A DNA stretch of 64,000 nucleotides, from the NCBI GenBank assembly GCA_028866895.1, contig JAGWHF010000007.1, positions 1-64,000 on the forward strand, given 5' to 3'. Origin of the DNA: Nitrososphaerota archaeon (GTDB lineage Archaea > Thermoproteota > Nitrososphaeria > Nitrososphaerales > Nitrosopumilaceae). The notes below the pieces were generated by a model. It ran no database searches. It was not told where the DNA came from and saw nothing but the letters and a program-made list of their open reading frames with translations. The stretch's first letter is position 1. Each line of letters begins with the position of its first letter. The position numbers and the translations under genes were made by a program. Of the stretch, positions 4,603 through 24,577 are shown one piece after another.

Positions 4603-5340
4603 TTGGATATTTTATCATTTGGTATTTCTGGGAGCTTTGCTGCGTTCAGAGATCCATCAGTAACATCTCATCAGACGGTTTCCTTCATACCCTCGAAAAG
4701 TGCCGTAATTGGAATAGTTGGGGCCATGATTGGAACAAAAAGAAGTAATTCGCTATCAGAATTGTACAGTTCAGAATATCTAGAACTATACAAAAACACC
4801 AGTATTGGGCTTAGGTTTGAATCCGAGCCAAAAAAGGTAGTTTACTTTACAAATCATCGCTCCCTCAAAGAAACAAAAACAAAACCCGTAAAATCAGAGC
4901 TTGTAGACTCACCAAAATATACCGTATTTGTTTCGTCAGACAGTAATACGATGGCAAATCTGCAAAGCGCCATTGAACAGAACAAGTTTTCTTTTTCACC
5001 GTACTTGGGGCACGTATACTGTCCTTGTGTTGTTTCTGACCTCAAGTATTACCAAAATGCCACGGAATCATCTGCAAAAAATAATGACACTTCCTGTGTC
5101 ATACTTGACGAATCAGATGTCTATTCGAACACATTCAAGATAGAACTGAACCCCAAATATGACGGCTCACATGTCATTATTGAGCGACATTTGCACCACT
5201 TTTTCTCCGAGGACAAATTACAAAGCAGGGTACTGAAGCACTGGATCCCGGTAAGGTCAGTCTTCACTGTAGCTAAAAGCCTTGAGCCAAAACTTTCAAA
5301 ATTTGTAAAGATATCTGATGAAATTGTCTGCTTATACTAA
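4603..5340 (+). CDS. cas5: Cas5 (type I-B), crRNA 5'-handle binding subunit
   Basis: A 245-residue Cas5 protein. The N-terminus LSFGISGSFAAFRDP followed by FIPSKSAVIGIVGAMIG is the RAMP-like ferredoxin fold start and Gly-rich loop of Cas5. In Cascade it caps the 5' handle of crRNA next to Cas7 and the large subunit. The start is TTG placed directly after the cas7 stop; no other start gives the conserved N-terminus. The end overlaps the start of cas3 by 23 bases. Confidence 0.9.
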   Translation: MDILSFGISGSFAAFRDPSVTSHQTVSFIPSKSAVIGIVGAMIGTKRSNSLSELYSSEYLELYKNTSIGLRFESEPKKVVYFTNHRSLKETKTKPVKSELVDSPKYTVFVSSDSNTMANLQSAIEQNKFSFSPYLGHVYCPCVVSDLKYYQNATESSAKNNDTSCVILDESDVYSNTFKIELNPKYDGSHVIIERHLHHFFSEDKLQSRVLKHWIPVRSVFTVAKSLEPKLSKFVKISDEIVCLY

Positions 5341-7543
5341 ATACGTACGGTTTCTTTCTCATCCAGACAACAAACCTTTGACGGATCATCTAATCAAAGT
5401 TGCCAACAAGGCAAAGGAGCTTTCAAGTCAGACCGGCCTAAATTGTGGAGACGCTGCATATTACGCCGGACTGCTGCATGACATAGGAAAGATAAATCCC
5501 TATTATCAAGAAATTTTTCACGCTGATGAAGATAAGAGAAAATTCGTGGAAGAAACAATGATGCAAACATATGAACGGAACCATTCTTCATTCTCCGCAT
5601 GGGCTGCCCTAAAACTACTAGGTGAAAAGACAGGACTTGATGAAAAAACAGTCGACATGACAATACGTGCAATTTACGGGCATCATTCCAATTTGAAAAA
5701 CATACTCCCAGAACAGGACAAAACTGAAAAATACAAGAATTCACAGATGGCAATATCCCACTACCTAAAAGACTTTGAAGAATCGGTAAAACACCGTGAT
5801 GAATTTTCATTACTTGATTGGGAGTCCTGTCTTTCCAAGTTCCAAAGGCCAGTTGAGTTTAAATCAGAATTAGAATCTGACGATGAAAATTATCTATTTG
5901 ATTTTTTGAAATCAACTTGCATATTCTCAGCCTTGCTTCAGGCAGACAAGGGGAGCTTTGGTGAATGGAGCACACCTGACTTTGAGATTAATTTTGATAC
6001 CGATAAATTGATATCGAAATCTAAATCCGCCTCAAAACTCGTATATCTAAGAGAGATGTTTCAAAAACACGCTCTAGAAAATCATGATGCAACAACTGGG
6101 ATCCTAATCATAGAGGCACCAACCGGAATAGGCAAAACAAAGATCTTTTTGGATCTGGTCTCAAGATATAAACAAACAAGCAAACTCGAGCGAGTATATT
6201 ATTTTTCTCCCCTTCTTGCATTGACAGAAGACTTTGAAGAAAAATTATTTGGCATAGCGAATAATCGAGAGGAAATTCTTGTCTATAATCATCTCTTCTC
6301 AGGAAGTCTAGAAGAAAAGAGAAAACAAGAAGGGATCTCTACCTCATATTCGTGGGATTTTGAAAATGAGTCCTTTAACAAGGAATTCATAATTACGACA
6401 ACACAAAGGCTTCTAATTACATTGTTCTCTAACAGGCAGTCAGATAAACTAAAACTGTTATCACTAAAAAATTCTTTATTAATAATAGATGAGATTCAAA
6501 CCATCCCGAAATTAATTCTTCCAACACTTGTTGGCCTATTTGAACAAATTGCACTTCACCTCAACTCAAAGATTCTTCTGGTGAGTGCCACAATTCCGTA
6601 CGAGTTAAAAGATATAAAGAAAATATCAATTCAAAACGAAGTAAAAAACGCATATCTGAAACATACTTCTAAAAGAATTACATTTTTAGAACCGTTTGAA
6701 ATTCCTAACGAGTTGACAGGCAGGGTTCTCTTCATGTCCAATACCGGAAGGAAAAATCTTGAAATATATGAAAAAATAAATCAGAGGTTCACACAATCGC
6801 ACATTATTTACATGTCATCAGGGATTAGCAAAAATCAGAGGCTTGAACGATTAAAAAACATAAAACCTAATTCCATCGTCGTGTCTACTCAGGTTATAGA
6901 GGCGGGCGTAGACATTAGCTTCGATCAAATGTATCGGGAAGCTGCACCCCTTGACAGCATAATACAAGCTATGGGGAGGCTCAACAGGGAGGGCGGCAAT
7001 GACAATGCTGTTATGGCCGTATTCAAAGATAAGAAAGATGACTGGCAGCCTTACAGCAAACTAGAATGGCAGGAATCGCTAAAGATAATCAGAAAAGCTC
7101 ATTCTTCAGAGGAGATATACGGCGAACTGCCCCTGTACTATCAAAGGATTTGGCAAGAAAACAAGACCAATGAAGAATCAACAAAAAAACTTGCAAGGCT
7201 AATGAGATGTCTTGATTATGAAGGAATATGGGATTTCATAAAGAGACAGGCAATCCTTGATAATGACCAAGAAACGGTATTCATTCCTGAAAATAAAGAC
7301 CAATGGAACCAGATTAGAAATACATTTTTTTCAAAATTTGACTTAGAAAGAAAAAAATTTCGAAGATTCGCATCACTAACTGCAAACCTTCCCAAAAGCC
7401 CGGAGGATCTTGGAATCAAAGAATTCTTCGAGCCGGAATTATATGAAAAAAACATTCTTTTGCCAAAATGGGACTCTCTCGGCGAGGTATATGATAAGGT
7501 AGTTGGATTGGATAAGTGGTCAAAGGGAGTGGTTGAGAAATAA
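5318..7543 (+). CDS. cas3: Cas3 helicase-nuclease with N-terminal HD domain
   Basis: A 741-residue effector that unwinds and degrades DNA marked by Cascade. The HD nuclease is N-terminal: H24 in LTDHLIK, H54-D55 in LLHDIGK and the later YGHHS. The SF2 helicase follows: Walker A APTGIGKT (about 267-274), DEIQ (about 391-394), SATIP (about 422), and motifs V/VI in STQVIEAGVD and QAMGRLNREGG. All key residues appear intact and the length is normal, so the enzyme should be active. The ATG start lies within the cas5 end. It is the only helicase-nuclease in the locus. Confidence 0.96.
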   Translation: MKLSAYTKYVRFLSHPDNKPLTDHLIKVANKAKELSSQTGLNCGDAAYYAGLLHDIGKINPYYQEIFHADEDKRKFVEETMMQTYERNHSSFSAWAALKLLGEKTGLDEKTVDMTIRAIYGHHSNLKNILPEQDKTEKYKNSQMAISHYLKDFEESVKHRDEFSLLDWESCLSKFQRPVEFKSELESDDENYLFDFLKSTCIFSALLQADKGSFGEWSTPDFEINFDTDKLISKSKSASKLVYLREMFQKHALENHDATTGILIIEAPTGIGKTKIFLDLVSRYKQTSKLERVYYFSPLLALTEDFEEKLFGIANNREEILVYNHLFSGSLEEKRKQEGISTSYSWDFENESFNKEFIITTTQRLLITLFSNRQSDKLKLLSLKNSLLIIDEIQTIPKLILPTLVGLFEQIALHLNSKILLVSATIPYELKDIKKISIQNEVKNAYLKHTSKRITFLEPFEIPNELTGRVLFMSNTGRKNLEIYEKINQRFTQSHIIYMSSGISKNQRLERLKNIKPNSIVVSTQVIEAGVDISFDQMYREAAPLDSIIQAMGRLNREGGNDNAVMAVFKDKKDDWQPYSKLEWQESLKIIRKAHSSEEIYGELPLYYQRIWQENKTNEESTKKLARLMRCLDYEGIWDFIKRQAILDNDQETVFIPENKDQWNQIRNTFFSKFDLERKKFRRFASLTANLPKSPEDLGIKEFFEPELYEKNILLPKWDSLGEVYDKVVGLDKWSKGVVEK

Positions 7544-8181
7544 AAATCTCACTTTGTTACTCAATACTTGATGCTGATTCCAGCAGAATAACTGCGCCAG
7601 AGCTTAGGGGATATCTAGGATATCTTTTTGCGTCGGACCCAGAATTTCACCACCATTCCGACAACTCGTTTCATTATCCGCTGGTGCAATACAAGAAGGT
7701 AAACGGAAAATTGATGGTTCTTGGATTAAATAATTACTCTAGAATTGTATTTGATAAAATGTCCCAGTTAGATAATCTTGTAACGCAAGACAAAAAAATA
7801 AACCTGTTCAACGTGGACATGACAACAAATACATTTGAGATCAAGGAAGAATATTCTGTTTACAGGTTTGTCAGTCCTTGGCTTGCATTAAACGAGAACA
7901 ACTATGAAAAATTCAAGTTGCTGGAAAAAACAAAGAGGAGGGAATTTTTAGAAAAAATATTAGTTGCAGGTGTCTTGAGCGCTCTCAAGGGTCTAGGAGT
8001 AAGGGTGGGATTTCAGGTAAGCGCACAAATTAGTAAATTCAAATCTATTCAGACCGAAGCCCATAAAAATAAATTTATCGGTTTTTACTGCGAATTTGCG
8101 TTAAATGTAACACTTCCCAAATTTCTGGGGCTTGGGAAGAGCGTCTCAAAAGGATTTGGAGTGGTTGAGAGGATAAAATGA
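7540..8181 (+). CDS. cas6: Cas6 crRNA-processing endonuclease, non-canonical start
   Basis: Cas6 cuts the repeat RNA to make crRNAs. The C-terminal glycine loop LGLGKSVSKGFGVVE is unmistakable, and the N-terminal half (LRGYLGYLF, then PEFHHHSDNSFHYPLVQYKK) is classic Cas6. That N-terminus is open only from just after a TGA at 7534-7536 and contains no ATG, GTG or TTG before GTG 7684, which would remove about 48 conserved residues. I therefore start at ATA 7540, giving MKISLCYS and an ATAA overlap with the cas3 stop. ATC 7546 is the alternative: it sits eight bases after GGAGTGGTTGAG, exactly as the cas1 ATG does at 8178. Predicted length is about 213 aa, near the family norm. The last four bases overlap cas1. 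Confidence 0.85.
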   Translation: MKISLCYSILDADSSRITAPELRGYLGYLFASDPEFHHHSDNSFHYPLVQYKKVNGKLMVLGLNNYSRIVFDKMSQLDNLVTQDKKINLFNVDMTTNTFEIKEEYSVYRFVSPWLALNENNYEKFKLLEKTKRREFLEKILVAGVLSALKGLGVRVGFQVSAQISKFKSIQTEAHKNKFIGFYCEFALNVTLPKFLGLGKSVSKGFGVVERIK

Positions 8182-9128
8182 TCGTAGAGGTTACCACACA
8201 TGGAAGTGTCATCAAAAGGGATCACGATTCATTTGTCATAAAAAACGATGATTCCTCTTCAGAAATTCCAGCCGAAAAGATAGAGGCAATAATCATAACC
8301 TCAAACTCCCTGATAAGTACTCAGGCAATCCGTCTTTGCATTGAAAAAGAGATTCAGCTAGTAGTCTCCGACTGGAGTGGGAGGCCTATTGCAAGACTCT
8401 GGTCAAGCACGCCCGGCAAAGCGACCCAGATACGGCGGAGGCAATACCTCACACAGGAGACAAGGCTTTCATTTGAGATTTCAAGGCATATTGTTTCGGT
8501 AAAGCTTCAAAGGCAGAGAAAATTTTTGCGTTATTTGATAAACAACCGAGACAGTGTGCCAGAGCAGTTAGAAAGGGCGATATCGGTCATTACCAAATCA
8601 ATATCGTCTGTTTCCAGCTTGGGATATTCTTCCGATGCCAAGAATATGCTTCTGGGATACGAGGGTTCATCAGCCATGCAATATTTCGACGCAATTTCCA
8701 AGTCGCTTCCCATAAAGTGGCAGTTCGAAGGGAGGAGTCAAAACCCTGCCAGAGACCCATTTAACGCAACACTAAACTATCTTTACGGAATCACGTATGG
8801 TTCTGTTGAAAAAATAATAATCTTATCAGGCCTTGATCCTAATGCGGGGTTTTATCACTCTGACATTTATGGCAAGCCTACTCTATCCTTTGACATTATT
8901 GAGCTTGTTAGACCTGTCATAGACAGAACTGTTGTATCGATCTTTACAAAAAGAATGGCTAAGGAATCATGGTTTGAAGACAGATCAGAATCAGGAATAT
9001 CCATGTCAAAGGATGCAAGGATGTTTCTCATATCAGAGTATCGTGAAAAAAACCTCAAAGATGTTGAAGCAACATCTTGGAAATTCTGCGGATGGCTCAT
9101 TGAAAAAATCATGGAAGGCAACAAATGA
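8178..9128 (+). CDS. cas1: Cas1 integrase of spacer acquisition
   Basis: A 316-residue Cas1. With Cas2 it inserts new spacers at the leader end of the array. The metal ligands are present: E162 in GYEGSSAMQYF, H227 in GFYHSD and E242 in FDIIELVRP. The N-terminal beta domain and C-terminal helical domain have normal length. The gene begins with an ATGA overlap with cas6 and ends with an ATGA overlap with cas2, so the adaptation genes are coupled to the interference operon. Confidence 0.96.
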   Translation: MIVEVTTHGSVIKRDHDSFVIKNDDSSSEIPAEKIEAIIITSNSLISTQAIRLCIEKEIQLVVSDWSGRPIARLWSSTPGKATQIRRRQYLTQETRLSFEISRHIVSVKLQRQRKFLRYLINNRDSVPEQLERAISVITKSISSVSSLGYSSDAKNMLLGYEGSSAMQYFDAISKSLPIKWQFEGRSQNPARDPFNATLNYLYGITYGSVEKIIILSGLDPNAGFYHSDIYGKPTLSFDIIELVRPVIDRTVVSIFTKRMAKESWFEDRSESGISMSKDARMFLISEYREKNLKDVEATSWKFCGWLIEKIMEGNK

Positions 9129-9421
9129 AAGAGAACATGTACTATGCGACATATGACGTATCTGACAATGGAATACGAGAAAGCATAATCCACGTGCTGA
9201 AAAATTCAGGATTTACAAGGATTCAAAAGAGCGTCTTTTGCGGGAAAATATCCAACCAACAAAAAAAGGACATCATAGAAAAGATCAAAGTCATAATTGG
9301 CGAGACGGATTCCTTTTATCTCATGATGGCATGCACATCTTGCTTCGGAAAGATGAGCATAGTGGGCAAAGGGTTTGACAAAGAATATGTTTCCGATGAA
9401 AAAGACTCGATGATATTATGA
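9125..9421 (+). CDS. cas2: Cas2, adaptation complex subunit
   Basis: A 98-residue Cas2 with the diagnostic YATYDVSDNGIR start of its ferredoxin fold; D11 corresponds to the conserved Asp. It dimerises as the core of the Cas1-Cas2 complex. It overlaps cas1 and cas4 by four bases each. Confidence 0.94.
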   Translation: MKENMYYATYDVSDNGIRESIIHVLKNSGFTRIQKSVFCGKISNQQKKDIIEKIKVIIGETDSFYLMMACTSCFGKMSIVGKGFDKEYVSDEKDSMIL

Positions 9422-10011
9422 TAAACCCGATAAATGTCACAACTGTTGTGGAACACGTATTCTGCCCAAAGTTCACATACTATTCATGTGTACTTGGTTT
9501 ACAGCAGTATGAAGAAAAACGTGGTACAGTATATGCGGGCAGAAAATTTCACGCAAGACATGAAAAGACAAACACCACGTATCTCAGGAAAAATTTTGGC
9601 AACGAAAAAATTCTCGGCCTTAAAATGTATTCAAAAACATACGACTTTGTTGGAATTGTGGACGAAGCGGTAATCTCAGATGACGAAATACTCCTAGTTG
9701 AAAGGAAATATTCTGATTACAATCAGGTTAGTCCAACAATTAAGGTGCAAATAGGACTTTTATCCATACTGCTGGAAGAAAATCTTGGAAAGCCTGTCAG
9801 AAGGTCGCTTGTCATATTTTCAAAGGATAAGAGGACCGAGATCACAGTAACCGTGGATGACGAGGTAAGGAATTTTGCTCTAGATATGTTAAATGAAGCA
9901 AGAAAAGTTATCCTATCTGGAATTAGTCCAAAATCGCAGTATGACGGGAGATGCGTTAACTGCTGCTATCGCAAAGTATGTCCTGTCGGCTCTTTAAATA
10001 TGGCCGGATAA
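9418..10011 (+). CDS. cas4: Cas4, PAM-selecting exonuclease of adaptation
   Basis: A 197-residue Cas4 with iron-sulphur cluster cysteines: C16 (FCPKF) near the N-terminus and a C-terminal cluster C179, C182, C183 and C188 (GRCVNCCYRKVCP). The RecB-type nuclease core is seen in DFVGIVDEAV and LLVERKYSD. Cas4 trims prespacers and sets PAM choice. It is the last gene of the operon, 79 bp before the first repeat. cas4 at the end, after cas1-cas2, and cas6 after cas3 differ from the common I-B order. Confidence 0.93.
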   Translation: MINPINVTTVVEHVFCPKFTYYSCVLGLQQYEEKRGTVYAGRKFHARHEKTNTTYLRKNFGNEKILGLKMYSKTYDFVGIVDEAVISDDEILLVERKYSDYNQVSPTIKVQIGLLSILLEENLGKPVRRSLVIFSKDKRTEITVTVDDEVRNFALDMLNEARKVILSGISPKSQYDGRCVNCCYRKVCPVGSLNMAG

Positions 10012-10090
10012 TTGTGACAAACCCTAAAAAATGGTCTATATGGATGAAAAACAGTTCAAAATCACGAACAAAATTCAGACCAAATTCGCT
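10012..10090 (+). promoter_or_regulatory. CRISPR leader (short)
   Basis: This AT-rich 79-bp gap between cas4 and the first repeat is the presumed leader, because the degenerate repeat is at the opposite end. It is short for a leader, and no clear TATA box is visible, so the array may be transcribed partly by read-through from the cas operon. Confidence 0.55.
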
Positions 10091-12156
10091 GTCTGAAAGA
10101 CTAATCCATCAAAACAAGGATTGAAACTTGTGAACCAGCAGTAATCTATGCCCTGGCTTTAATGTCTGAAAGACTAATCCATCAAAACAAGGATTGAAAC
10201 TTGGTAGATTTAAGAGCCATGGCAATATCCCTAGGAGTCTGAAAGACTAATCCATCAAAACAAGGATTGAAACGAAAGTGCTGCACTTGTCCAGGCTGCC
10301 GTCTGCGAGGTCTGAAAGACTAATCCATCAAAACAAGGATTGAAACACATATTACATCAATGAATCCCCATCAGGATCATATGTCTGAAAGACTAATCCA
10401 TCAAAACAAGGATTGAAACTGATGTTTATGCGAACCTAATCCCTGCATTGATTTAGGTCTGAAAGACTAATCCATCAAAACAAGGATTGAAACTCAAAGT
10501 CTTTTATGAGTTGGGGTATGACATCGAGTCTGAAAGACTAATCCATCAAAACAAGGATTGAAACACGACAGGCAGTCAGTACCGCTTGAACTCCAGCACC
10601 TGTCTGAAAGACTAATCCATCAAAACAAGGATTGAAACCATCTTGTATCGCGTCACTCAATTCGTTCCCTCCGGAGTCTGAAAGACTAATCCATCAAAAC
10701 AAGGATTGAAACCAGCTTGCCAAGGATACAGTCATCAACCCAATGCGGGTCTGAAAGACTAATCCATCAAAACAAGGATTGAAACGTATTCCTTGTATGT
10801 GGTTGATGCAGTCAATCACTGTCTGAAAGACTAATCCATCAAAACAAGGATTGAAACTGTTCAAGTTGCATGGATGCGTACAACGAATAGAGTCTGAAAG
10901 ACTAATCCATCAAAACAAGGATTGAAACTACGACAAGCATGTAAAGAGTTTTTCGATAATCATGTCTGAAAGACTAATCCATCAAAACAAGGATTGAAAC
11001 CACCTAGTCATAGAATGGTCTGTTTGTGCTTGATGGTCTGAAAGACTAATCCATCAAAACAAGGATTGAAACACAGACCATGCCTGATACCTATAGAGCC
11101 TACTGTATGTCTGAAAGACTAATCCATCAAAACAAGGATTGAAACCGTTTGTCGCCTGCTTCTTTAACTTCGCACTCTAGTCTGAAAGACTAATCCATCA
11201 AAACAAGGATTGAAACCTTCAAAGGTAAATGGGTAGTTGAAAACGTTGTAGTCTGAAAGACTAATCCATCAAAACAAGGATTGAAACTGGATCTATGGAA
11301 AATAGAAAAAGAGGTTTTGTCAGTCTGAAAGACTAATCCATCAAAACAAGGATTGAAACAGAACTCCCCACTTGTTTCTGCATCACTCTGGAAGTCTGAA
11401 AGACTAATCCATCAAAACAAGGATTGAAACGTACAGATACCACAGCAGTTTGAGAACCTCCTTCCAAAGTCTGAAAGACTAATCCATCAAAACAAGGATT
11501 GAAACAATACATTTCAGCCTACTACACAGATGGCACTAGGTCTGAAAGACTAATCCATCAAAACAAGGATTGAAACTCAACGGCGTCAACCCCAATCTCC
11601 AAGATGTCAACAAGTCTGAAAGACTAATCCATCAAAACAAGGATTGAAACCTATAAAAATATTCTTGACTACAAGAAGAGAAATGGTCTGAAAGACTAAT
11701 CCATCAAAACAAGGATTGAAACACGACCTAGAGGCCTCAGAGGCCCTAGGCGTTAAAAGTCTGAAAGACTAATCCATCAAAACAAGGATTGAAACTTCAA
11801 ACCTACCGTATTAAGTCCGAGGGGGTTTCCTGTCTGAAAGACTAATCCATCAAAACAAGGATTGAAACGCTGTATGTTGGTAATTACCCTCATTGGTTCC
11901 GGGTCTGAAAGACTAATCCATCAAAACAAGGATTGAAACAGAAACAATATGAAGCTATGAAAAAACATGGCATGAGTCTGAAAGACTAATCCATCAAAAC
12001 AAGGATTGAAACACATGGATCTTTGCAAATGCGATTTTTCTTCTCCTGTCTGAAAGACTAATCCATCAAAACAAGGATTGAAACCATCTAGTTTCTCAAA
12101 CGCTTTATTTGGTACAGGGGTCTGAAAGACTAATCCATCAAAGCAAGGATTGAATC
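10091..12156 (+). CRISPR. CRISPR array, 29 repeats of 37 bp, 28 spacers
   Basis: The 37-bp repeat begins GTCTGAAAGACTAATCC and ends CAAGGATTGAAAC. I counted repeat starts at 10091, 10164, 10237, 10310, 10383, 10457, 10528, 10602, 10676, 10749, 10821, 10892, 10964, 11036, 11109, 11180, 11251, 11323, 11394, 11469, 11540, 11614, 11686, 11759, 11832, 11903, 11976, 12048 and 12120. Spacers are 34-38 bp. All repeats look identical except the last, which has two substitutions (AAAGCAAGG and GAATC), marking the trailer end. The 5' part can fold as GTCT-GAA-AGAC, and the final eight bases ATTGAAAC match the usual Cas6-made handle. The array is transcribed in the same direction as cas. Confidence 0.98.
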
Positions 12157-15968: not shown

Positions 15969-17021
15969 TTGTTGGACGGTTCTATGATGAACGCGGCGGT
16001 TTACTACTCACCGGACAAGCTGGAGGTTACAAGCATCCCATTTGTGGTGGGAGAGGAGGATGTTGCAATAAAGGTAAAGGCATGCGCTGTATGCGGATAT
16101 GACGCTCGCATATACAGGCATGGCCATAAAAAAGTAAGATCACCCATAGTTCTAGGACATGAGATCTGCGGCGAGGTGATGCGGGATGCAAAAACTTTGG
16201 ATGGTGTAATCCGTGCGGGCACTAGGGTTGCGGTCTCCCCGCTAGTACCGTGCCTTTCCTGCCAATTCTGCAGGAGCAAAATGTACAACCTCTGCAAAAA
16301 TCTAAGGGAGATAGGATCCTCTGTCGATGGCGGGTTTGCAGAATATCTCAAGGTCCAGGAACAGACGGTCAAAATTGGAGGCTTGGTTCCGGTGCCAGAC
16401 AACCTCAACGACGACGAGGCGGCCCTTTTGGAGCCGTTGGCATGCTGTCTGAACGGCTTCTCGCGGCTGGGAAGTGTCGAGAGCGGCCAATCAGTAGTAA
16501 TAGTGGGGGATGGGCCGATAGGTCTGATTCACCTGCAATTGTGCAAGATGCTGTACAACGCAAGGACCGCGGTGGTGGGAAAGATCCCGCTCAGGGCAAA
16601 AAAGGCAAAACAGCTGGGAGCAGATGCGGTGTTCATTTTCGACGATGATACCGAATCGGACATTTTGGACTTTACGGAAGGAGGTGCAAGCGTTATCATT
16701 GTCGCAACCAGCAATCCAGAGGCCTTGAATTTTATCACCAAAATATCAGCAAAGAACGCAAGAATCAATCTGTTCGCAGGTTTCTCTGGCAGTAACGCCG
16801 TCTTGCTTGACCCGAACTGGATCCATTACAACCAGGTCTCGGTGACTGGGAGCTTCAGCTCAACGCCCCAGATGCTTGCAAAGGCTGCAAGTATCGCATC
16901 CGACAGGATAATAGACCTGTCAAAGATAGTGACACACCAGTATCCTCTAAGGGAGATAAAGGATGCAATCAAGACCACGGAGAGCTTTCAGGGATTGCGT
17001 TCTGTCATTGACAGTTTTTAG
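15969..17021 (+). CDS. Zinc-dependent alcohol/polyol dehydrogenase-like protein
   Basis: A 350-residue medium-chain dehydrogenase. Catalytic zinc ligands are C42 (CAVCGYD) with H64-E65 (GHE). The structural zinc loop has C95, C98, C101 and C109. The Rossmann fold shows VVIVGDGPIGL. The family oxidises secondary alcohols or polyols with NAD(P); sorbitol- and threonine-dehydrogenase-like members are closest in style, and the substrate is unknown. AAGGAGG sits just before the TTG start. It converges with the ebo-like operon (17-bp gap) and may act on the same compound, though it is on the other strand. Confidence 0.88.
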   Translation: MLDGSMMNAAVYYSPDKLEVTSIPFVVGEEDVAIKVKACAVCGYDARIYRHGHKKVRSPIVLGHEICGEVMRDAKTLDGVIRAGTRVAVSPLVPCLSCQFCRSKMYNLCKNLREIGSSVDGGFAEYLKVQEQTVKIGGLVPVPDNLNDDEAALLEPLACCLNGFSRLGSVESGQSVVIVGDGPIGLIHLQLCKMLYNARTAVVGKIPLRAKKAKQLGADAVFIFDDDTESDILDFTEGGASVIIVATSNPEALNFITKISAKNARINLFAGFSGSNAVLLDPNWIHYNQVSVTGSFSSTPQMLAKAASIASDRIIDLSKIVTHQYPLREIKDAIKTTESFQGLRSVIDSF

Positions 17022-17038
17022 CCATGCCACGCCCAAAT

Positions 17039-17917
17039 TTAATAGGGGTTCACCTCTTTCCTCATTTCTTTGGAAGGCAGCTCGCACTCCAGCCGCTTTA
17101 GAAACAAGAGCCCCTCCAAGGTGGACGACATGTAGTCTTTGTCATCCAGCTGCGGCTCAAAGGAGATGTAGCCGCCGTATCCTGCCCCTTGCAGTGCGCC
17201 CAATATTCCACCGAAGTCAATGTGCCCGCTTCCAGGCATTCTCCTGTTATTTTCTGCAAAGTGGGTGTGTTTGAGAAAATCACCAGCATCCTGTATGGCG
17301 TGTTCTATGGACCCCTCCTCTATGTTCATGTGGAACGTATCTAAAAGGACGCCGGCGTTTTCCCAGCCTATGTTCTGTACTATCCCAATTGCATCGGCAG
17401 CCGTCGTACAGTAAGGCGTGCTGAACCTGTTAAGCGGCTCTATTAGGAGATCCACCCCACGTTCCGACGCATATCCTGCAAGGTCTGACAGCAACGGTAT
17501 GGCACGCTCGATAATCGCCAATTTCTGGGCCTGAGGCGACGTCATATGGTTTGGGTCCGGCAAACCATGATCCTCGTCGGCAAATAGGCACACGTTGAAC
17601 TCATGGCCGCCAAGCTCCCGGCACATATCTATGCAGCCCCTGACGTATTTCTCTGCATGCTTCCTCACGTCGCCATCCAAGCTTAGCATCCTCCTCATGG
17701 AATTCCGAGGGCTCTTCCTGCCCCACATTCCGGTGACACCGCACACGGATATCTTGTAGGATCTTATGATCCCATTGAGCTCGTCAAGATCCGTATTCTG
17801 GGGCTCGCCTGCAATCTCCACTGCCTCATACCCCTGCCGTTCCAGCCTCTCAAGGGTTGTGCCAATCCGCTCCATCCCTCTAAAAGAGGATAACGTGATT
17901 GAATACTTGAAACTCAT
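17039..17917 (-). CDS. Sugar phosphate isomerase/epimerase-like TIM barrel (second copy)
   Basis: A 292-residue xylose-isomerase-like TIM barrel of the tagatose/psicose 3-epimerase type. Likely metal and catalytic residues are E160 (LLIEPLNR), D193 (LLDTFHMN), H219 (THFAENNRR) and E254 (SFEPQ), all present. It is the last gene of a five-gene operon and overlaps the phosphodiesterase gene by four bases. In ebo clusters one such TIM barrel (EboE) is usual; here there are two with clearly different sequences, so they may act on successive intermediates. Confidence 0.85.
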   Translation of the reverse strand: MSFKYSITLSSFRGMERIGTTLERLERQGYEAVEIAGEPQNTDLDELNGIIRSYKISVCGVTGMWGRKSPRNSMRRMLSLDGDVRKHAEKYVRGCIDMCRELGGHEFNVCLFADEDHGLPDPNHMTSPQAQKLAIIERAIPLLSDLAGYASERGVDLLIEPLNRFSTPYCTTAADAIGIVQNIGWENAGVLLDTFHMNIEEGSIEHAIQDAGDFLKHTHFAENNRRMPGSGHIDFGGILGALQGAGYGGYISFEPQLDDKDYMSSTLEGLLFLKRLECELPSKEMRKEVNPY

Positions 17918-19266
17918 GCCTGCAGGTTTTTTGGGCCACCTGTATGTCCGGCATCCAACAAGTACCCAGCGATATCAACGCACTTTACAGTCCCTTCATG
18001 TGACCTGTTCAAGCCCAACTTGCGGCTGGATGCATAAAATGCAAAACCCTCCCCGGTCTCATTATCGGCAGGCCTCCCATGAGATCCCTTTATCAGCCCA
18101 GTATCCTGTGAGATGGATTTTTTTTCACGGTCAAAAAAGAGCTCCAAGGGATCGTATCCCGGCTTTCTGTGTATGTCCACCGTGTCTGCAAAGGGCGGCG
18201 CATCTTCAAGTTTGTGCCACCAGTAGTAGCTAAACCACCTGTCCCTGTCGGAAATTGCAATCAGCTCGCCGCTGCGCTCGTGGTCTATCCTCATCTGCCT
18301 CTTTTCACTTGAGGACAATACCCTGTCTATTCCCCTGAGGCCTTCAAGGATCTTCCTAGTCTCACCCACGTGCCCGTCCTTGACATAAACATGTGCCACC
18401 TGGTGGTCAACCATTGCAAACGCCTTGCTGTATTCAAAGTCCATGTATTCCTTGTCGCCGATTACCCTTGTGGCAAGAAGGCCTTCATCCCTTAGTGCCA
18501 GATTGATTGGAATGTCCCCCCTTACGTCATCAAAGGCGTATTCGGAAAGAATGATGAACTCTGTCTCCTCCCCTATCCCCAATTTTGCTGCCTTCTCCAC
18601 AAGGCTCCCTACAATTGCATCTGCTCGTCGCAGATCCTCCCTTGCCTCGCCGCTCTTTTTCCCAAACCTTTGTGCAGAATAGTCTACATGCGGTATGTAC
18701 ACAAACATCATTTCTGGCCGTGACTTTTCCAGGGTAATCTCTGCAGCTTTGGCAATCCATTCGCTTGATTTGTGGGACGCAAAAGGGCCCCAGTAGGTTG
18801 AGAGGTCAAATTCCCCTGCAATACTTTTTATCTCCTCATAGTATCCTGCCGGCCTTGAATAACACCACGGTACCATGCTCCCGTCACCCATGTGGAGAGG
18901 CCTCGGGGTGACCACAATGTCTGATGAGGCAAACATGGTATTCTGCCAGAAAAGGACCGCGGTCTTACAATCTGTACCTGCGCCTGACCCGTTTCTTACC
19001 GCATCCCATATCCTCCCGGACTGCACCAGCGAGCTTGGCTGTTCCCAGAAAGATACCGTGTGGGTGCCCCTGTCGTACAATCCATTGGAGATTATTCCGT
19101 GTTCATCCGGGTATTTTCCGGACAGGATGCTTGCCTGAACCGTGCAAGTTACTGCGGGAAAGACGGGTTCCATTTGTGCATGCTCCCCGCTCTCAGACAA
19201 CCTGGCAATGTTCGGCACCAATCCTGATGAGAGATGCTCCACTTCAAGACCCACGATGTCCAACAC
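17914..19266 (-). CDS. Nucleotide pyrophosphatase/alkaline-phosphatase-type phosphodiesterase (EboF-like)
   Basis: A 450-residue member of the alkaline phosphatase superfamily, type I phosphodiesterase group. D3 (LDIVGL) is a metal ligand. FPAVTCTVQASILSGKYPDEHGI carries the nucleophile Thr (about 40). IPHVDYSAQ provides the next metal site. The usual SDHG is replaced by SEYAF, and GSHGRP supplies the late His. It probably hydrolyses a phosphate ester or pyrophosphate. The ten codons before GTG 19266 stay in frame and look protein-like (AAKHTI) but contain no start codon, so the GTG is used. A 67-bp gap separates it from the UbiA gene. Confidence 0.82.
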   Translation of the reverse strand: MLDIVGLEVEHLSSGLVPNIARLSESGEHAQMEPVFPAVTCTVQASILSGKYPDEHGIISNGLYDRGTHTVSFWEQPSSLVQSGRIWDAVRNGSGAGTDCKTAVLFWQNTMFASSDIVVTPRPLHMGDGSMVPWCYSRPAGYYEEIKSIAGEFDLSTYWGPFASHKSSEWIAKAAEITLEKSRPEMMFVYIPHVDYSAQRFGKKSGEAREDLRRADAIVGSLVEKAAKLGIGEETEFIILSEYAFDDVRGDIPINLALRDEGLLATRVIGDKEYMDFEYSKAFAMVDHQVAHVYVKDGHVGETRKILEGLRGIDRVLSSSEKRQMRIDHERSGELIAISDRDRWFSYYWWHKLEDAPPFADTVDIHRKPGYDPLELFFDREKKSISQDTGLIKGSHGRPADNETGEGFAFYASSRKLGLNRSHEGTVKCVDIAGYLLDAGHTGGPKNLQA

Positions 19267-19333
19267 AATGGTATGCTTTGCGGCCGTGTCGTCTCACCCT
19301 CTCCTGCCATGCCTGGGGCGGGGCCAGTTTTTC

Positions 19334-20287
19334 CTAAGTGACATAGAAATACCTCGCTGAAAGAAAGGCCGGGAGCAGCAAGAGCAGGTTGAGAAGGCCT
19401 GGCAACGGTCCGCTGGTGCCTGTTATGAAGACCGAATCAAGTATGATGATGGATAACACCAAATTTTTTATTCCCGACTGGATCGACCCCCCGCTGCCCG
19501 GCAGGGTATTTTTGAAAACAAGGGTGACGATGACTGCAAGCGGGCCAAGAATTATGAGATCCCATGCGCCAAACATACCTGTAAATGTTGCAGCCGCCGA
19601 CGCCGCTATGATAAAGTAGAGGCCCAAAAATGGGATTATCACCAGACCCTTTGAGGATGTCCCGCTGACTTCGCTCCTGCTCAATACTGTGATAGCAACC
19701 ACATAGGCAAAGATGCATGCCCCTGCAAACAGGGTGTGATCAAAATTCAGTCTGCCTGTATGGGATAGTGCCTGGCTTGCGCCAAGCACTACATTGAGAA
19801 ACCTGGCCCCTCCCATCGTCAACGGGCCTGACCTTGAACCTCGCTTCATATTGTAGTTGTAGGCAATTATTACTCCCGACAGACCGATAGTTACAATCAG
19901 GCTTGGTACGGAGACAGCAGATGCAATGATGATTGCTGCCGACATTGAACCTATGGCCATACCTAAGGCGGCACGCCCCGATATTGTCCCTGACGGAAGA
20001 GGACGAGAGGGACGCTCTTTTCTGTCAGTCTCAAGATCAAAATAGTCGTTGAATACCACTCCTGAGACGTAAAGAAGAGTGGATGAGATCATCAGCGTTG
20101 CAAGGCTGAAAACGTTAAGTTCTGGCAGGGGAGTTATCGTAAGATATCCGACAACCACGTTTGATGGTGCAGTGAACAGGTTTGGCAGCCGTACAATCTG
20201 GAGGTACCTGCGAATTCCCCCGCGCCCATAATTTCCACCGTCTGCCGAAAACAGGCCTTGCCAGGGCAGCCTGAAGAAACCCGTCAT
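19334..20287 (-). CDS. UbiA-family prenyltransferase (EboC-like)
   Basis: A 317-residue integral membrane prenyltransferase with eight or so hydrophobic segments. The first prenyl-diphosphate/Mg motif is NDYFDLETDRKERPSRPLPSG (N80, D81, D84, D88). The second region YNYNMKRGSRSGPLTMGGARF is less Asp-rich than in UbiA itself, as in EboC-type proteins. It should transfer an isoprenoid chain to an unknown acceptor in the membrane. It overlaps the upstream epimerase gene by four bases. Confidence 0.88.
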   Translation of the reverse strand: MTGFFRLPWQGLFSADGGNYGRGGIRRYLQIVRLPNLFTAPSNVVVGYLTITPLPELNVFSLATLMISSTLLYVSGVVFNDYFDLETDRKERPSRPLPSGTISGRAALGMAIGSMSAAIIIASAVSVPSLIVTIGLSGVIIAYNYNMKRGSRSGPLTMGGARFLNVVLGASQALSHTGRLNFDHTLFAGACIFAYVVAITVLSRSEVSGTSSKGLVIIPFLGLYFIIAASAAATFTGMFGAWDLIILGPLAVIVTLVFKNTLPGSGGSIQSGIKNLVLSIIILDSVFITGTSGPLPGLLNLLLLLPAFLSARYFYVT

Positions 20288-21126
20288 TTTGCAATCCCGC
20301 TCAGGTAATCAAAGGCTTCTCGGGCGGCCTCTGCCGGGTTGTCTTGATACGTGTAAAGCTCCACTGTTACAAAGCCGCCGTATCCAATCCCTCTGATGGC
20401 GTCAAATATTTTGCCAAAGTCAATGGCGCCATGTCCGGGTATCAGATGGTAGTGCGTCAGGTCCCCCGCAATGTCGGCAAGGTGGAAGTGTTCGATATAG
20501 TCTGATAACTCAAAGACCAATTCGGCAGGATCTTCTCCCACGCAGAAGAAATGCCCGATGTCAAAGTTGAGCCTGACGTAGTCTGAATGAACCTGCTTCA
20601 TGAAATTCTTGAACTGCCTCGAGTTCTCCAGCAGGAGGGCGGGTTCAGGCTCGACCAGTATCTTGACTCCCTCCCTTTCTGCCGCCTTGGAGGCCAGTGT
20701 GAGTCCCTCTGCAAACAATTTCTCCAATTGCGGTATCCCGTTATTCCCTGTCCCGCGCAGAGGTCCCCCGGGCTCTGTGGAAACATTGGATGCGCCTATC
20801 TTGCCTGCAAGTTTGAGGCATTCTATGGTATGTTGCAATCTATAATCACGTGATTCCCAGTCGTCCTCAATCCATGACGGGTGATACGTATCACCGCATG
20901 CAAATAGAGTAAATGCATTGAGGTTTGAGATTTTGACATTCTGGGAGGCCAGCAGCCTTCTTATGGACCTGACATCACCTTCCCCCATGTCGGGGGGAAA
21001 AGCATGGGGCCTGTCGCATAACAACTCGACGCCCTCATAGCCGATTGAAGCTATCGTCCTTATGGAATCCTCCAGGGGATAATTCTTGAAGGCGTTGGTG
21101 CTAAAGGCAAACTGCATGTCTCTCAA
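20284..21126 (-). CDS. Sugar phosphate isomerase/epimerase-like TIM barrel (EboE-like)
   Basis: A 280-residue xylose-isomerase-like TIM barrel. Visible active-site elements are ILVEPEPAL (Glu), LNFDIGHF (Asp and His), FHLADIAG (His) and TVELYTY (Glu). The substrate is unknown. It lies 12 bp after the TatD-like gene and overlaps the UbiA gene. Compared with the second copy at 17.0-17.9 kb it is only distantly similar, which argues against a recent duplication. Confidence 0.85.
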   Translation of the reverse strand: MRDMQFAFSTNAFKNYPLEDSIRTIASIGYEGVELLCDRPHAFPPDMGEGDVRSIRRLLASQNVKISNLNAFTLFACGDTYHPSWIEDDWESRDYRLQHTIECLKLAGKIGASNVSTEPGGPLRGTGNNGIPQLEKLFAEGLTLASKAAEREGVKILVEPEPALLLENSRQFKNFMKQVHSDYVRLNFDIGHFFCVGEDPAELVFELSDYIEHFHLADIAGDLTHYHLIPGHGAIDFGKIFDAIRGIGYGGFVTVELYTYQDNPAEAAREAFDYLSGIAK

Positions 21127-21138
21127 CCCACGTCAAAC

Positions 21139-21948
21139 TCAGGGATTCCATGTGAACCTTGGTGACTGCCTGAAGAAGTCACACGCATTGTAGTAAGTGA
21201 CCTTTTCTATTACTGACTGGCTGAACCCCTCCTTCGCCATTTTTTCTGCAACCTGTGGGACTGACAACGGGTCTGAAACCCCCCAATCTGCAGCGCTGTT
21301 TATCATTATCCTGTCTGACCCGTGATCACGGATTATCTTCATGGCCCTTTCAGGCGACAGTTTTGTGACCGGATAAACTGAGAGGCCTGCCCAGAGGCCA
21401 AGCTCAAGCGTTTTACCGATGGTCTCCTCTGTGTTATGATCAATTAGGATCTTGTCCCTGTCATACCGTTTTCCGTTCTTTAGGATTTTTTCTATTCTTC
21501 CCATTGCATCCACCTTGTTTGTGTGCGGCAGGTGTATCATCATGGGCATTCCCTTTGAGGCCGCAATGTCCATCTGTTTTACAAAAACTTCCTCCTCGAG
21601 ATCGTTTATGAGGTTATAGCCAAGCTCCCCCAACGCTACCACCCTTTCCCTTTCAAGAAACCTCTCTTTCATAGGCTCTACGGCCTCGAGGGCAAGCGGC
21701 CTCAGTGTCGCCTCCTTGGGATTTACAGAAATACAAACAAAGTGCTCGATACCAAAATCCTTTGCCCTCTTTGTTTCAAATGTTATCATATGTTCCCAAT
21801 AATCCTCAAATGTGCCCACGTGGGTTCTTGGACTTCCCAACCAAAATGACGGCTGGACTATGACCTTGATGCCGGCTTTTGCCATGGCGGCATAATCATC
21901 GGTAGTCCTTGAGTACATGTGAATATGTGGATCAAAATATTTTGCCAA
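21139..21948 (-). CDS. TatD-like metal-dependent hydrolase (EboB-like)
   Basis: A 269-residue amidohydrolase-fold protein. Metal ligands are visible in FDPHIHM (H8, H10), ALGELGYN (Glu), MIHLPH (His) and LIDHNTEET (His); SAADWG carries the late Asp. This form, with a long loop after the first motif, matches EboB rather than DNase TatD. It opens the operon; AT-rich sequence upstream (21949-22000) is the likely promoter. The 21949-22326 gap holds no other gene that I can support. Confidence 0.82.
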   Translation of the reverse strand: MAKYFDPHIHMYSRTTDDYAAMAKAGIKVIVQPSFWLGSPRTHVGTFEDYWEHMITFETKRAKDFGIEHFVCISVNPKEATLRPLALEAVEPMKERFLERERVVALGELGYNLINDLEEEVFVKQMDIAASKGMPMMIHLPHTNKVDAMGRIEKILKNGKRYDRDKILIDHNTEETIGKTLELGLWAGLSVYPVTKLSPERAMKIIRDHGSDRIMINSAADWGVSDPLSVPQVAEKMAKEGFSQSVIEKVTYYNACDFFRQSPRFTWNP

Positions 21949-22326: not shown

Positions 22327-22635
22327 TCACTTTGACCTGCGGACAGGCTCGTGGCGCGAGGAGCCCATTAGGTCGTATTGACCGGTATGTTTTGTATCGA
22401 TCATGTCTTCAATCTCCTTGCATTTGAGATAGAATTTGTGGCCCTTTTCTGTGAGTCTGTATAGCTCGGTTCCTTCTTGACGCTTGATCATCTTGTTCTC
22501 TATCAAGAAGGACAGATATTCGGTCAATTGGGTGTATGACAGGTATGCATCGTACATTATCTTTGTCTTTGTGGCTCCCTGCCTTGCCACCTCTAGGATT
22601 ATCCCGACTATCTCTGTTCTACTCCTGTATTTCAT
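22327..22635 (-). CDS. Winged-helix DNA-binding protein (MKYRSR family)
   Basis: 103 residues from ATG 22635. The N-terminal part MKYRSRTEIVGIILEVARQG is followed by ATKTKIMYDAYLSYTQLTEYL, a helix-turn-helix, and a wing YRLTEKGHKFY. It resembles the ArnR1-like winged-helix group (HTH_45) frequent in Thaumarchaeota. At least three close relatives lie in this window (23.1, 28.6 and 38.6 kb, same strand). The C-terminal tail is longer and basic. The target is unknown. Confidence 0.85.
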   Translation of the reverse strand: MKYRSRTEIVGIILEVARQGATKTKIMYDAYLSYTQLTEYLSFLIENKMIKRQEGTELYRLTEKGHKFYLKCKEIEDMIDTKHTGQYDLMGSSRHEPVRRSK

Positions 22636-22738
22636 GCTTTTTTTATATGTGATAGTATTATAAAAAAAATATGGCACTTGATTACATATTCGCGATCATT
22701 TTCTGTGTCTAGCCATCACTGGAATGCAAAACATGCTG

Positions 22739-22999
22739 TTAGGGGGAAAGAAGATGGTCGTACCCTAGTATCCTGCCATCCTTGCTGTCAATCCTGACCG
22801 CCATGATGTCTTCTTTTAACAAACCTACCTCCATTGACACTATCCAAGAGTTGCTGCTAGGGGAAATTGACCTGAAGATTACCAGGGAGTGGTATTGGTT
22901 AAGAAATCTCCTTGCTATCGCTATTGCCTGGCTTGGATCGACGGAAGTTTTCTCGCATGCCCCGTCAAGTCTGGCTTTCTTAATAAAAATTACCACCAC
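22739..22999 (-). CDS. Small PepSY-like domain protein
   Basis: 86 residues with a single alpha-beta domain: SQAIAIARRFLNQYH, then WIVSMEVGLL, then MAVRIDSKDGRILGYD. The last part looks like the end of a PepSY-type fold. The first 70 residues of the protein at 40267-40839 have the same arrangement, so the two are probably paralogous. No signal peptide. The start is GTG. Function unknown. Confidence 0.65.
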   Translation of the reverse strand: MVVIFIKKARLDGACEKTSVDPSQAIAIARRFLNQYHSLVIFRSISPSSNSWIVSMEVGLLKEDIMAVRIDSKDGRILGYDHLLSP

Positions 23000-23143
23000 A
23001 CCTCATATGTCATTTCAAGATCTTTCTCGATTGATTTAACCATTAAGCCAGTTCATTATGTAAAATTCCTATCTACTATGGATCCATTTTCGGCATCGTC
23101 TCTTGGACAGGTGAGGCAATGTAAAAGGTGGCGGAGGGAGCCC

Positions 23144-23422
23144 CTAGCGTGCGGCCTTTGCTATCTTTTCTTCCCCTTTCTTTGCTGTCATCTCGTCAAT
23201 CTCTTCGTATAACTTCATCATCCTCCTTCCCTTTTCTGTAATTGTGTATACTTGCATTTCCTTCTCGTACTTGATGAGGTTGTTAGATTCCATGTATGAC
23301 AGGTATTCCTTCAACTGGGCATAGGACAGGTACGCCTTGTACATTATCTTGGTCTTGGTAGCACCTGTGCTTGCGGATTCAAGTATCATGAAAACTATCT
23401 CGTTCCTGCTGCGGTATTTCAC
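23144..23422 (-). CDS. Winged-helix DNA-binding protein (MKYRSR family)
   Basis: 92 residues, MKYRSRNEIVFMILESAS then GATKTKIMYKAYLSYAQLKEYLSY. The wing is VYTITEKGRRMM and the tail is a short charged helix. It is closest to the 28.6-kb copy. Probably a homodimeric transcription regulator. It starts directly with the conserved Met. Confidence 0.87.
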   Translation of the reverse strand: MKYRSRNEIVFMILESASTGATKTKIMYKAYLSYAQLKEYLSYMESNNLIKYEKEMQVYTITEKGRRMMKLYEEIDEMTAKKGEEKIAKAAR

Positions 23423-23540
23423 AGCACTTTTCCACGTTTTTCTTATAAAAATAATTTGCGCAAATTATCTAGAAGACTGTTCGTTTACCCTCTAGATGAC
23501 GGGGAGAAATTCAGCAAAGTTCCTATCATGAGCATCGATC

Positions 23541-23816
23541 TTAGTCAATTTTTTCTTCAAAGACCGATTCAAGCAGCTTGTATGCCTCAATGTACTTCTT
23601 GCCCACCGTGGTGGTTATATACACTGGTCTGCTTGAGGACTGCAAGTTTTTTGCCATATCGATCAAATTGTGTCCGTGGAGAAAGTGCAGGTACTGTTCT
23701 ATCTGTTTTGAGTTGAGATTGCACCTGTACATGATGTGGGTCTTCAGGGCACCTTTTTCACAAACCTCCAAAATCAACTCGATTATCTCTACCCATCCAC
23801 GGTTTCCCCAACCCAT
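23541..23816 (-). CDS. Winged-helix DNA-binding protein, divergent relative
   Basis: 92 residues from ATG 23816. VEIIELILEVCEKGALKTHIMY and SKQIEQYLHFLHGHNLI match the helix-turn-helix layout of the MKYRSR proteins, and VYITTTVGKKYIEAY is the wing, but identity is lower. An upstream TTG (23852) would add 12 polar residues. It stands next to two closer family members, suggesting old local duplication. Confidence 0.75.
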   Translation of the reverse strand: MGWGNRGWVEIIELILEVCEKGALKTHIMYRCNLNSKQIEQYLHFLHGHNLIDMAKNLQSSSRPVYITTTVGKKYIEAYKLLESVFEEKID

Positions 23817-23878
23817 TACACTCTTCCTAGTAGGTCCGTCTGTACTTGCCAAAACTTCATCTCGGTCTTAATCTTTGA

Positions 23879-24577
23879 TTATGCAAAATCAAGTATTTCG
23901 TTCAGGTTTGTTGGTGGAACGCTGTTCTTGTTCTGCTCGTATGGTATGGTGAGCAAGGCAAAGTCCTTGTTGAAGCACATCTTGAGCACCTCGAACGCCT
24001 CCGCGTATTTCACTCCTGTGTTCAGTCTGCTTTGTAGCGCGCGGTACTCTGCAAGCCCCTTTATTGCATTTGCTTTGAGGTATAGCTTGCTTTGTTGAGA
24101 CCAAAAGATTTCTATCAGCTCTACCTTTTCAAAAACTACGTCAGAGATGTCGTAAAAGACCTTTGGCTCAAAATTCCTGCTCAACGGTATCTCGTATGAT
24201 AACACGTTTGAATTGAACCGAGAAGCTTCGATTGTGGCCACTGCAATTGCCCTGTGATCGTGATGTACGTCACCCTGTGAATGCGTAAAGATGATGTCAG
24301 GCTTTGTTTTGTTGATAAAATGTTCAATGTGGTTGATAAGGTCGCTTGTCACGCTGAGCCTAGAATCCTCGAAATTGTCGATCCAGAGCTGCTTTGCACC
24401 TATGAATTTGGCTGATCGATGCAACTCATCGGTTCTCTGCTTGGGGTCTCCGGATGCACCACCTCTCGTAAGAGTAAACATGTAAACCTCATGCCCACCC
24501 CTTGCAGCCTTTAATAGAGTTCCACCGCATCCCAACTCTATGTCATCTGGATGAGCTCCTATTGCAAGAATCTTCAC
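23879..24577 (-). CDS. PIG-L/LmbE-family deacetylase
   Basis: A 232-residue zinc deacetylase. It shows the AHPDDIELGCGGTL motif (residues 8-21) and HSQGDVHHDHRA, which together supply the zinc site and catalytic Asp. Members remove acetyl groups from N-acetylglucosamine-type substrates (glycolipid, mycothiol or bacillithiol precursors); the substrate here is unknown. The start is ATG. No operon partner is evident; the winged-helix gene lies 62 bp downstream. Confidence 0.92.
   Translation of the reverse strand: MKILAIGAHPDDIELGCGGTLLKAARGGHEVYMFTLTRGGASGDPKQRTDELHRSAKFIGAKQLWIDNFEDSRLSVTSDLINHIEHFINKTKPDIIFTHSQGDVHHDHRAIAVATIEASRFNSNVLSYEIPLSRNFEPKVFYDISDVVFEKVELIEIFWSQQSKLYLKANAIKGLAEYRALQSRLNTGVKYAEAFEVLKMCFNKDFALLTIPYEQNKNSVPPTNLNEILDFA

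What the first reader, a model, noticed from the sequence alone, without database searches (positions are those of the whole stretch)
15969..21948. ebo-like biosynthetic cluster in an archaeon
Five tightly packed genes encode TatD-like hydrolase, TIM-barrel epimerase, UbiA prenyltransferase, phosphodiesterase and a second TIM barrel. This combination corresponds to EboB, EboE, EboC and EboF of the ebo operon known from diverse bacteria, cyanobacteria (there linked to export of a scytonemin precursor) and eustigmatophyte plastids. EboA and the dehydroquinate-synthase-like EboD are not seen. The product is unknown; an isoprenoid-linked, sugar-derived compound is plausible. An archaeal version is a good entry point to the pathway's core chemistry.
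Basis: partly seen in the sequence, partly recalled or inferred. Interest (0 to 1): 0.75.

Follow-up and report, generated by a model that had tools for sequence, protein, structure and literature searches.

The report
Archaeal variant of the ebo cluster
A soil ammonia-oxidising archaeon carries a genuine but remodelled version of the unexplained bacterial and algal 'ebo' gene cluster: three core enzymes are kept, while the ring-forming gene is missing and a dehydrogenase plus different sugar-isomerase-like enzymes stand in its place.

Summary
Five tightly packed minus-strand genes (17039-21948) encode TatD-like, TIM-barrel, UbiA, phosphodiesterase and second TIM-barrel proteins.

TatD, UbiA and the phosphodiesterase are true EboB, EboC and EboF: they group with bacterial Ebo proteins and share Ebo-specific residues. 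The TIM barrels are not EboE (30 bits against a 250-bit cut-off). EboA is not found in the genome, no EboD-type cyclase reaches its cut-off, and inositol-phosphate synthase is absent from all 201 genomes searched.

The cluster is patchy but recurrent in ammonia-oxidising archaea (AOA); related forms occur in haloarchaea, Brocadiaceae and Paenibacillaceae. The window-type MDR occurs only in cluster-bearing genomes (3 of 120). A second AOA type carries a duplicate of a housekeeping MDR instead, so a dehydrogenase was recruited twice.

Best reading: a membrane pathway that oxidises and epimerises a sugar or polyol, prenylates it with EboC, and trims it with EboB and EboF. Reactions, product and function are inferred, not shown. 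New variant of a known kind.

The parts
21139..21948 (-). EboB: TatD-like metal-dependent hydrolase, first gene of the operon; HxH (H8, H10), E108, H139, H171 and D221 conserved
   Evidence: best plasmid hits lie in ebo clusters; groups with bacterial EboB, SH-aLRT 100, against archaeal TatD-like outgroup; conserved residues
20284..21126 (-). TIM1: xylose-isomerase-like TIM barrel; E159, D189, H215 and E256 invariant; not EboE
   Evidence: 36-row alignment; model pLDDT 92; nearest solved folds are sugar epimerases/isomerases; tree
19334..20287 (-). EboC: UbiA-family prenyltransferase; N80 D81 D84 D88, RPxRP and C-terminal Thr conserved
   Evidence: EboC model 173.5 bits, best of 26; next SCO3242 family 136.7, then a general prenyltransferase model 78.4; groups with bacterial EboC, SH-aLRT 100
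17914..19266 (-). EboF: phosphodiesterase/nucleotide-pyrophosphatase-like protein; T40, D195, Q199, S241-E242-Y243 and H396 conserved with bacterial EboF
   Evidence: mostly 37-41% identity to plasmid ebo clusters, E about 1e-80 to 1e-92; other archaeal PF01663 no better than 1e-8
17039..17917 (-). TIM2: second xylose-isomerase-like TIM barrel, related to ketose 3-epimerases and 5-keto-L-gluconate epimerase (IolO); found in soil-type AOA clusters
   Evidence: (IolO 142.6 bits, cut-off 300)
15969..17021 (+). MDR: zinc-dependent medium-chain dehydrogenase (sorbitol / threonine / inosose dehydrogenase-like); C42, H64, Cys 95/98/101/109, Rossmann motif at 180
   Evidence: linked in 29 AOA loci with no full-cluster counterexample; present in 3 of 3 cluster genomes and 0 of 117 others

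Best explanation
This is an ebo-type pathway in an ammonia-oxidising archaeon (Ca. Nitrosotalea). It keeps the core EboB-EboC-EboF but lacks EboA, EboD and the standard EboE. It most likely makes a prenylated sugar-, polyol- or cyclitol-derived membrane compound. Proposed order (all inferred): the MDR oxidises an alcohol of a polyol or cyclitol to a ketone; the metal-dependent TIM barrels TIM2 and TIM1 epimerise or isomerise next to that ketone; EboC attaches a prenyl chain from a prenyl diphosphate at the membrane; EboF removes or transfers a phosphate-type group and EboB hydrolyses a precursor or protecting group. The MDR plus TIM2 (or TIM3) occupy the place taken elsewhere by a ring-forming enzyme (EboD or inositol-phosphate synthase). 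Shown here: membership of B, C and F; no EboA, above-threshold EboD-type cyclase or inositol-phosphate synthase found; linkage and co-occurrence of the MDR; conserved active-site residues. Inferred: every reaction, their order and the product. The product may act as a membrane carrier or protective compound, by analogy with Nostoc, where ebo genes are needed to move a scytonemin precursor to the periplasm (PMC6282210).
For: Membership: EboC model best at 173.5 bits, general prenyltransferase and DGGGP-synthase models at 78 or less. TatD and phosphodiesterase queries on plasmids return ebo clusters as best hits (regions read). Trees separate Ebo from archaeal TatD-like proteins and DGGGP-synthase-like UbiA with SH-aLRT 100; EboF is far nearer to bacterial EboF than to other archaeal PF01663. 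Ebo-specific residues are conserved across 51-58 sequences. Dehydrogenase step: the MDR is adjacent in 29 loci, 23 distinct genomes; the window type occurs only in cluster-bearing genomes; the aquatic type carries a second copy of a housekeeping MDR. Sugar or cyclitol chemistry: TIM1 sits directly beside inositol-phosphate synthase in 23 of 37 mostly desulfobacterial loci and beside an EboD-like cyclase in 2; haloarchaeal, Aneurinibacillus and Streptomyces versions carry inositol-phosphate synthase; TIM1 fold neighbours are sugar epimerases.
Against: No reaction has been assayed. The AOA genome has no recognised cyclase, so a cyclitol product is not established; an ordinary sugar fits equally. 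The one EboC homologue tested in vitro (UbiA-297) farnesylated aromatic quinoline acids (PMC9235831), so the acceptor could be aromatic. EboF carries E, Y and Q where well-studied members of its superfamily have D, H and H (judged by motif order, not superposed), so its phosphatase activity is uncertain. EboC is below the curated cut-off (173.5 against 250).
Confidence: 0.5

Rival explanations
1. The cluster makes an ordinary archaeal-type isoprenoid (a quinone, or an ether lipid with a modified sugar headgroup) and the UbiA is a divergent DGGGP synthase or quinone prenyltransferase; resemblance to ebo is only at superfamily level.
For: UbiA-family enzymes mostly make such products; the only solved-structure match by sequence is DGGGP synthase; AOA make sugar-bearing membrane lipids (own knowledge).
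Against: EboC scores more than 90 bits above any DGGGP-synthase or quinone model; the tree separates it from archaeal DGGGP-synthase-like proteins; three unrelated families (B, C, F) agree on Ebo; the cluster is absent from most AOA, which must still make their lipids.
Confidence: 0.12
2. It is a sugar or polyol catabolic operon (inositol- or keto-sugar-degrading, like Thermotoga IolM-IolO) and UbiA is a passenger.
For: The best NCBIfam matches of MDR and TIM2 are IolM and IolO; PDB neighbours are sugar epimerases.
Against: Both matches are far below cut-off (164 of 450; 143 of 300). UbiA sits in the middle of the operon in AOA and in relatives from other phyla, with its active-site residues conserved; no transporter or kinase is in the operon. 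AOA are mostly autotrophs (own knowledge).
Confidence: 0.1
3. It works as proposed for Nostoc ebo: the product is a lipid carrier or export factor for another small molecule rather than an end product.
For: [quoted passage not shown] an NHL beta-propeller gene lies next to TIM1 in some Nitrosocosmicus-like loci, and beta-propeller ScyD/ScyE-type proteins lie near other ebo clusters.
Against: No linked exporter or export-cargo genes were recognised in the operon; the Nostoc compartment (periplasm) has no exact archaeal counterpart; how translocation works was not shown biochemically in Nostoc.
Confidence: 0.2

Closest known systems
ebo operon, ABCDEF type (Bacteroidota, Cyanobacteria, eustigmatophyte plastids; PMC5133447)
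   Same: EboB, EboC and EboF homologous by score, tree and conserved residues; TIM barrel in an operon-like cluster
   Different: No EboA, no EboD, TIM1 instead of EboE; extra TIM2 and an MDR dehydrogenase
SCO3242-type actinobacterial cluster (Streptomyces sp. NBC_00028, L067)
   Same: EboB, EboC-like and EboF, plus an additional xylose-isomerase-like TIM barrel
   Different: Has inositol-3-phosphate synthase, EboA and EboE; the AOA cluster has none of these and has an MDR
Haloarchaeal megaplasmid clusters (Natronococcus L061, Halobaculum L062, Haladaptatus L063, Halocatena L064)
   Same: TatD-TIM1-UbiA in the same order with EboF nearby; TIM1 43-45% identical
   Different: Three of four with inositol-3-phosphate synthase; second TIM barrel is of the TIM3 family; no linked MDR found
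Brocadiaceae cluster (L117) and aquatic AOA clusters (Nitrosarchaeum, Nitrosopelagicus; L035, L108, L115)
   Same: TIM-TatD-TIM1-UbiA-phosphodiesterase core
   Different: First TIM barrel is TIM3, not TIM2; aquatic AOA use a different, duplicated MDR; none linked in Brocadiaceae

Membership tests
ebo operon | EboB: TatD-like protein in the Ebo clade | tested here: met
   Tree SH-aLRT 100 against archaeal TatD-like outgroup; 40-46% identity to plasmid EboB; signature residues shared
ebo operon | EboC: UbiA-family protein of the EboC group | tested here: met
   Best NCBIfam match EboC, 173.5 bits, though under the curated cut-off of 250; tree SH-aLRT 100, outgroup from the same phylum only
ebo operon | EboF: PF01663 protein of the EboF lineage | tested here: met
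   E about 1e-80 to 1e-92 to bacterial EboF; other archaeal PF01663 no better than 1e-8; shared residues; tree root weakly supported (25) because outgroups are distant
ebo operon | EboE: TIM barrel of model NF035939 | tested here: not met
   TIM1 30.1 bits, cut-off 250; TIM2 no match; tree places EboE beside TIM1 on a very long branch (SH-aLRT 92), so distant kinship is open
ebo operon | EboA domain protein (NF035938) | tested here: not met
   No match at E 10 or better in the 99.7%-complete genome; the model rang only below cut-off in control genomes, so a very divergent EboA could be missed
ebo operon | EboD: sugar phosphate cyclase (PF01761) | tested here: not met
   Only two sub-threshold matches (15.6 and 14.1 bits, cut-off 24.2) elsewhere in the genome
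SCO3242 / inositol-phosphate-synthase variant | myo-inositol-1-phosphate synthase in the cluster or genome | tested here: not met
   PF07994 absent from all 201 genomes (own and relatives) at E 1e-10, while 3 control genomes match
ebo operon | Makes a prenylated product / needed for metabolite export | not testable with these tools
   Needs biochemistry or genetics

The most novel reading that the evidence does not exclude
AOA have evolved a cyclase-free ebo pathway in which a dehydrogenase and a second TIM-barrel enzyme together replace the cyclitol-forming enzyme, giving a new class of prenylated sugar or cyclitol membrane compound in Archaea.
Probability: 0.3. Interest if true: 0.8.

Novelty: new variant of a known kind. 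Interest (0 to 1): 0.62.

Why it matters
The ebo cluster is spread over many bacterial phyla and algal plastids, yet its product is unknown. The archaeal versions reduce it to a shared core (EboB, EboC, EboF plus a TIM barrel), which tells a biochemist which proteins to assay first, and the interchangeable partner enzymes (EboD, inositol-phosphate synthase, or dehydrogenase plus TIM barrel) point to a sugar- or cyclitol-like intermediate. No archaeal ebo cluster was found in the papers searched here (open-licence library only).

Tried and rejected
EboA, EboD and inositol-phosphate synthase were sought in the own genome or relatives and not found. Assigning TIM1 to EboE was rejected on score. 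Treating TatD as an ordinary TatD nuclease was rejected. Sigma-70 promoter and terminator scans are not informative for an archaeon. The aquatic-type MDR looked at first like the same gene as the window MDR; comparison showed it is nearer to a housekeeping AOA MDR.

Full report
The genes. Between 15969 and 21948 lie six intact genes. Five are on the minus strand with gaps of 12, -4, 67 and -4 bp, in the order TatD-like, TIM1, UbiA, phosphodiesterase, TIM2. The sixth, a zinc-type medium-chain dehydrogenase (MDR), is on the plus strand and converges on TIM2 with 17 bp between them. The organism is an ammonia-oxidising archaeon (AOA) of the genus Nitrosotalea: genome G425 is of the same genus, and its contig C112 has the same length (19,953 bases) as the contig of Candidatus Nitrosotalea sp. 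FS returned as L075.

Which are Ebo proteins. UbiA: the best of 26 NCBIfam matches is EboC, 173.5 bits, under the curated cut-off of 250; the second is the related SCO3242 family (136.7), and general prenyltransferase, DGGGP-synthase or quinone models score 78 or less. TatD-like: a plasmid search returns 51 records, and the regions read there are ebo clusters annotated with EboA, EboE or both. Phosphodiesterase: mostly 37-41% identity to the same clusters, while other archaeal PF01663 proteins reach only 1e-8. Trees put TatD and UbiA with bacterial Ebo proteins against archaeal outgroups with SH-aLRT 100. The EboF tree shows the same grouping, but its root is weak (25) because the outgroups are very distant. 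Conserved residues shared with bacterial Ebo proteins are listed, among them the SR..DDY and DW..S.P motifs in EboB, RPxRP and a C-terminal Thr in EboC, and SEY, DHQ.AH and DIH.KPG.DP in EboF.

Which are not. TIM1 scores 30.1 bits against EboE (cut-off 250) and TIM2 does not match it. TIM1, TIM2, TIM3 and EboE form separate groups; EboE joins TIM1 only on a very long branch. EboA is not found in the genome, though that model also rang only below cut-off in control genomes. For EboD-type cyclases only two sub-threshold matches exist. Inositol-phosphate synthase is absent from 201 of 201 genomes.

Distribution. Full-length relatives of the UbiA were found in 10 of 398 genomes of the phylum, all in two families, with a sharp drop to partial, DGGGP-synthase-like matches below. 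TIM1 was found in 21 of 201 close relatives. The cluster is patchy, as expected of an accessory trait. In the EboB, EboC and EboF trees the Nitrosotalea proteins group with Nitrososphaeraceae, not with the other members of their own family, which suggests transfer among soil AOA. A scan of 84,980 genomes with TIM1 gave AOA, a Brocadiaceae genome, Planctomycetota, many Desulfobacterales, Aneurinibacillus and Paenibacillus (only the best 80 of 173 loci were returned, so these are lower bounds). Haloarchaeal plasmids carry the TatD-TIM1-UbiA core, three of four with inositol-phosphate synthase.

The dehydrogenase. Among 120 genomes of the family at least 90% complete, the window-type MDR occurs in three, exactly the three sufficiently complete genomes of that genus in which TIM1 was found; chance agreement of that kind is about 4e-6, ignoring relatedness. 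The MDR of the aquatic-type clusters is different: 113 of 120 genomes carry a housekeeping relative, and genomes with the aquatic cluster (G021, G045, G192, G471, G550) carry a second copy beside it. Two separate recruitments of a dehydrogenase to the same place argue that an oxidation or reduction belongs to the pathway.

Chemistry. TIM1 keeps a metal-binding set typical of its fold (E159, D189, H215, E256). A good model (pLDDT 92) finds sugar epimerases and isomerases as nearest structures. TIM1 stands directly after inositol-phosphate synthase in 23 of 37 mostly desulfobacterial loci and directly before an EboD-like cyclase in two (domains checked for one of each). This fits a sugar- or cyclitol-like substrate. 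EboC keeps the aspartate-rich motif for prenyl diphosphate. EboF keeps the nucleophile threonine, one aspartate and one histidine, but has Q199, E242 and Y243 where well-known members of its superfamily have histidine, aspartate and histidine; this rests on motif order and own knowledge, not on superposition. Its model (pLDDT 90) is nearest to phosphonoacetate hydrolase and nucleotide pyrophosphatases.

Function. The only Ebo reaction assayed in the papers found is that of UbiA-297, an EboC homologue, which farnesylates quinoline acids (PMC9235831); this leaves open an aromatic acceptor. [quoted passage not shown] The pathway proposed here, oxidation, epimerisation, prenylation and trimming, is inferred.

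Limits. EboC outgroups were from the same phylum only; trees were quick searches without bootstrap; the literature search covers open-licence papers only, and none found there reports ebo genes in Archaea.

Noticed in passing
window 1947-12156: A type I-B CRISPR-Cas set (Cas8b, Cas7, Cas5, Cas3, Cas6, Cas1, Cas4; Cas2 was not sought) followed by an array of 29 repeats spaced about 72 bp.
   Followed up: partly
window 22327-23852: Three nearby winged-helix genes (PF14947 HTH_45) upstream of the operon on the same strand, possible regulators.
   Followed up: partly
window 23879-24577: PIG-L deacetylase related to bacillithiol enzyme BshB1 (102.7 bits, cut-off 182.5); a relative lies near the cluster in two other Nitrosotalea loci (L075, L077).
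   Followed up: no
L055:832-1836; L056:2403-3743: An ergothioneine-type histidine methyltransferase (EgtD, above cut-off) and a sulfatase-modifying-factor/DinB protein lie beside the cluster in soil Nitrososphaerales.
   Followed up: no
L038:9482-10696: NHL beta-propeller protein next to TIM1 in Nitrosocosmicus-like AOA.
   Followed up: no
L119-L154: Two-gene modules of inositol-phosphate synthase or EboD-like cyclase plus TIM1, without other ebo genes, in many Desulfobacterales.
   Followed up: partly
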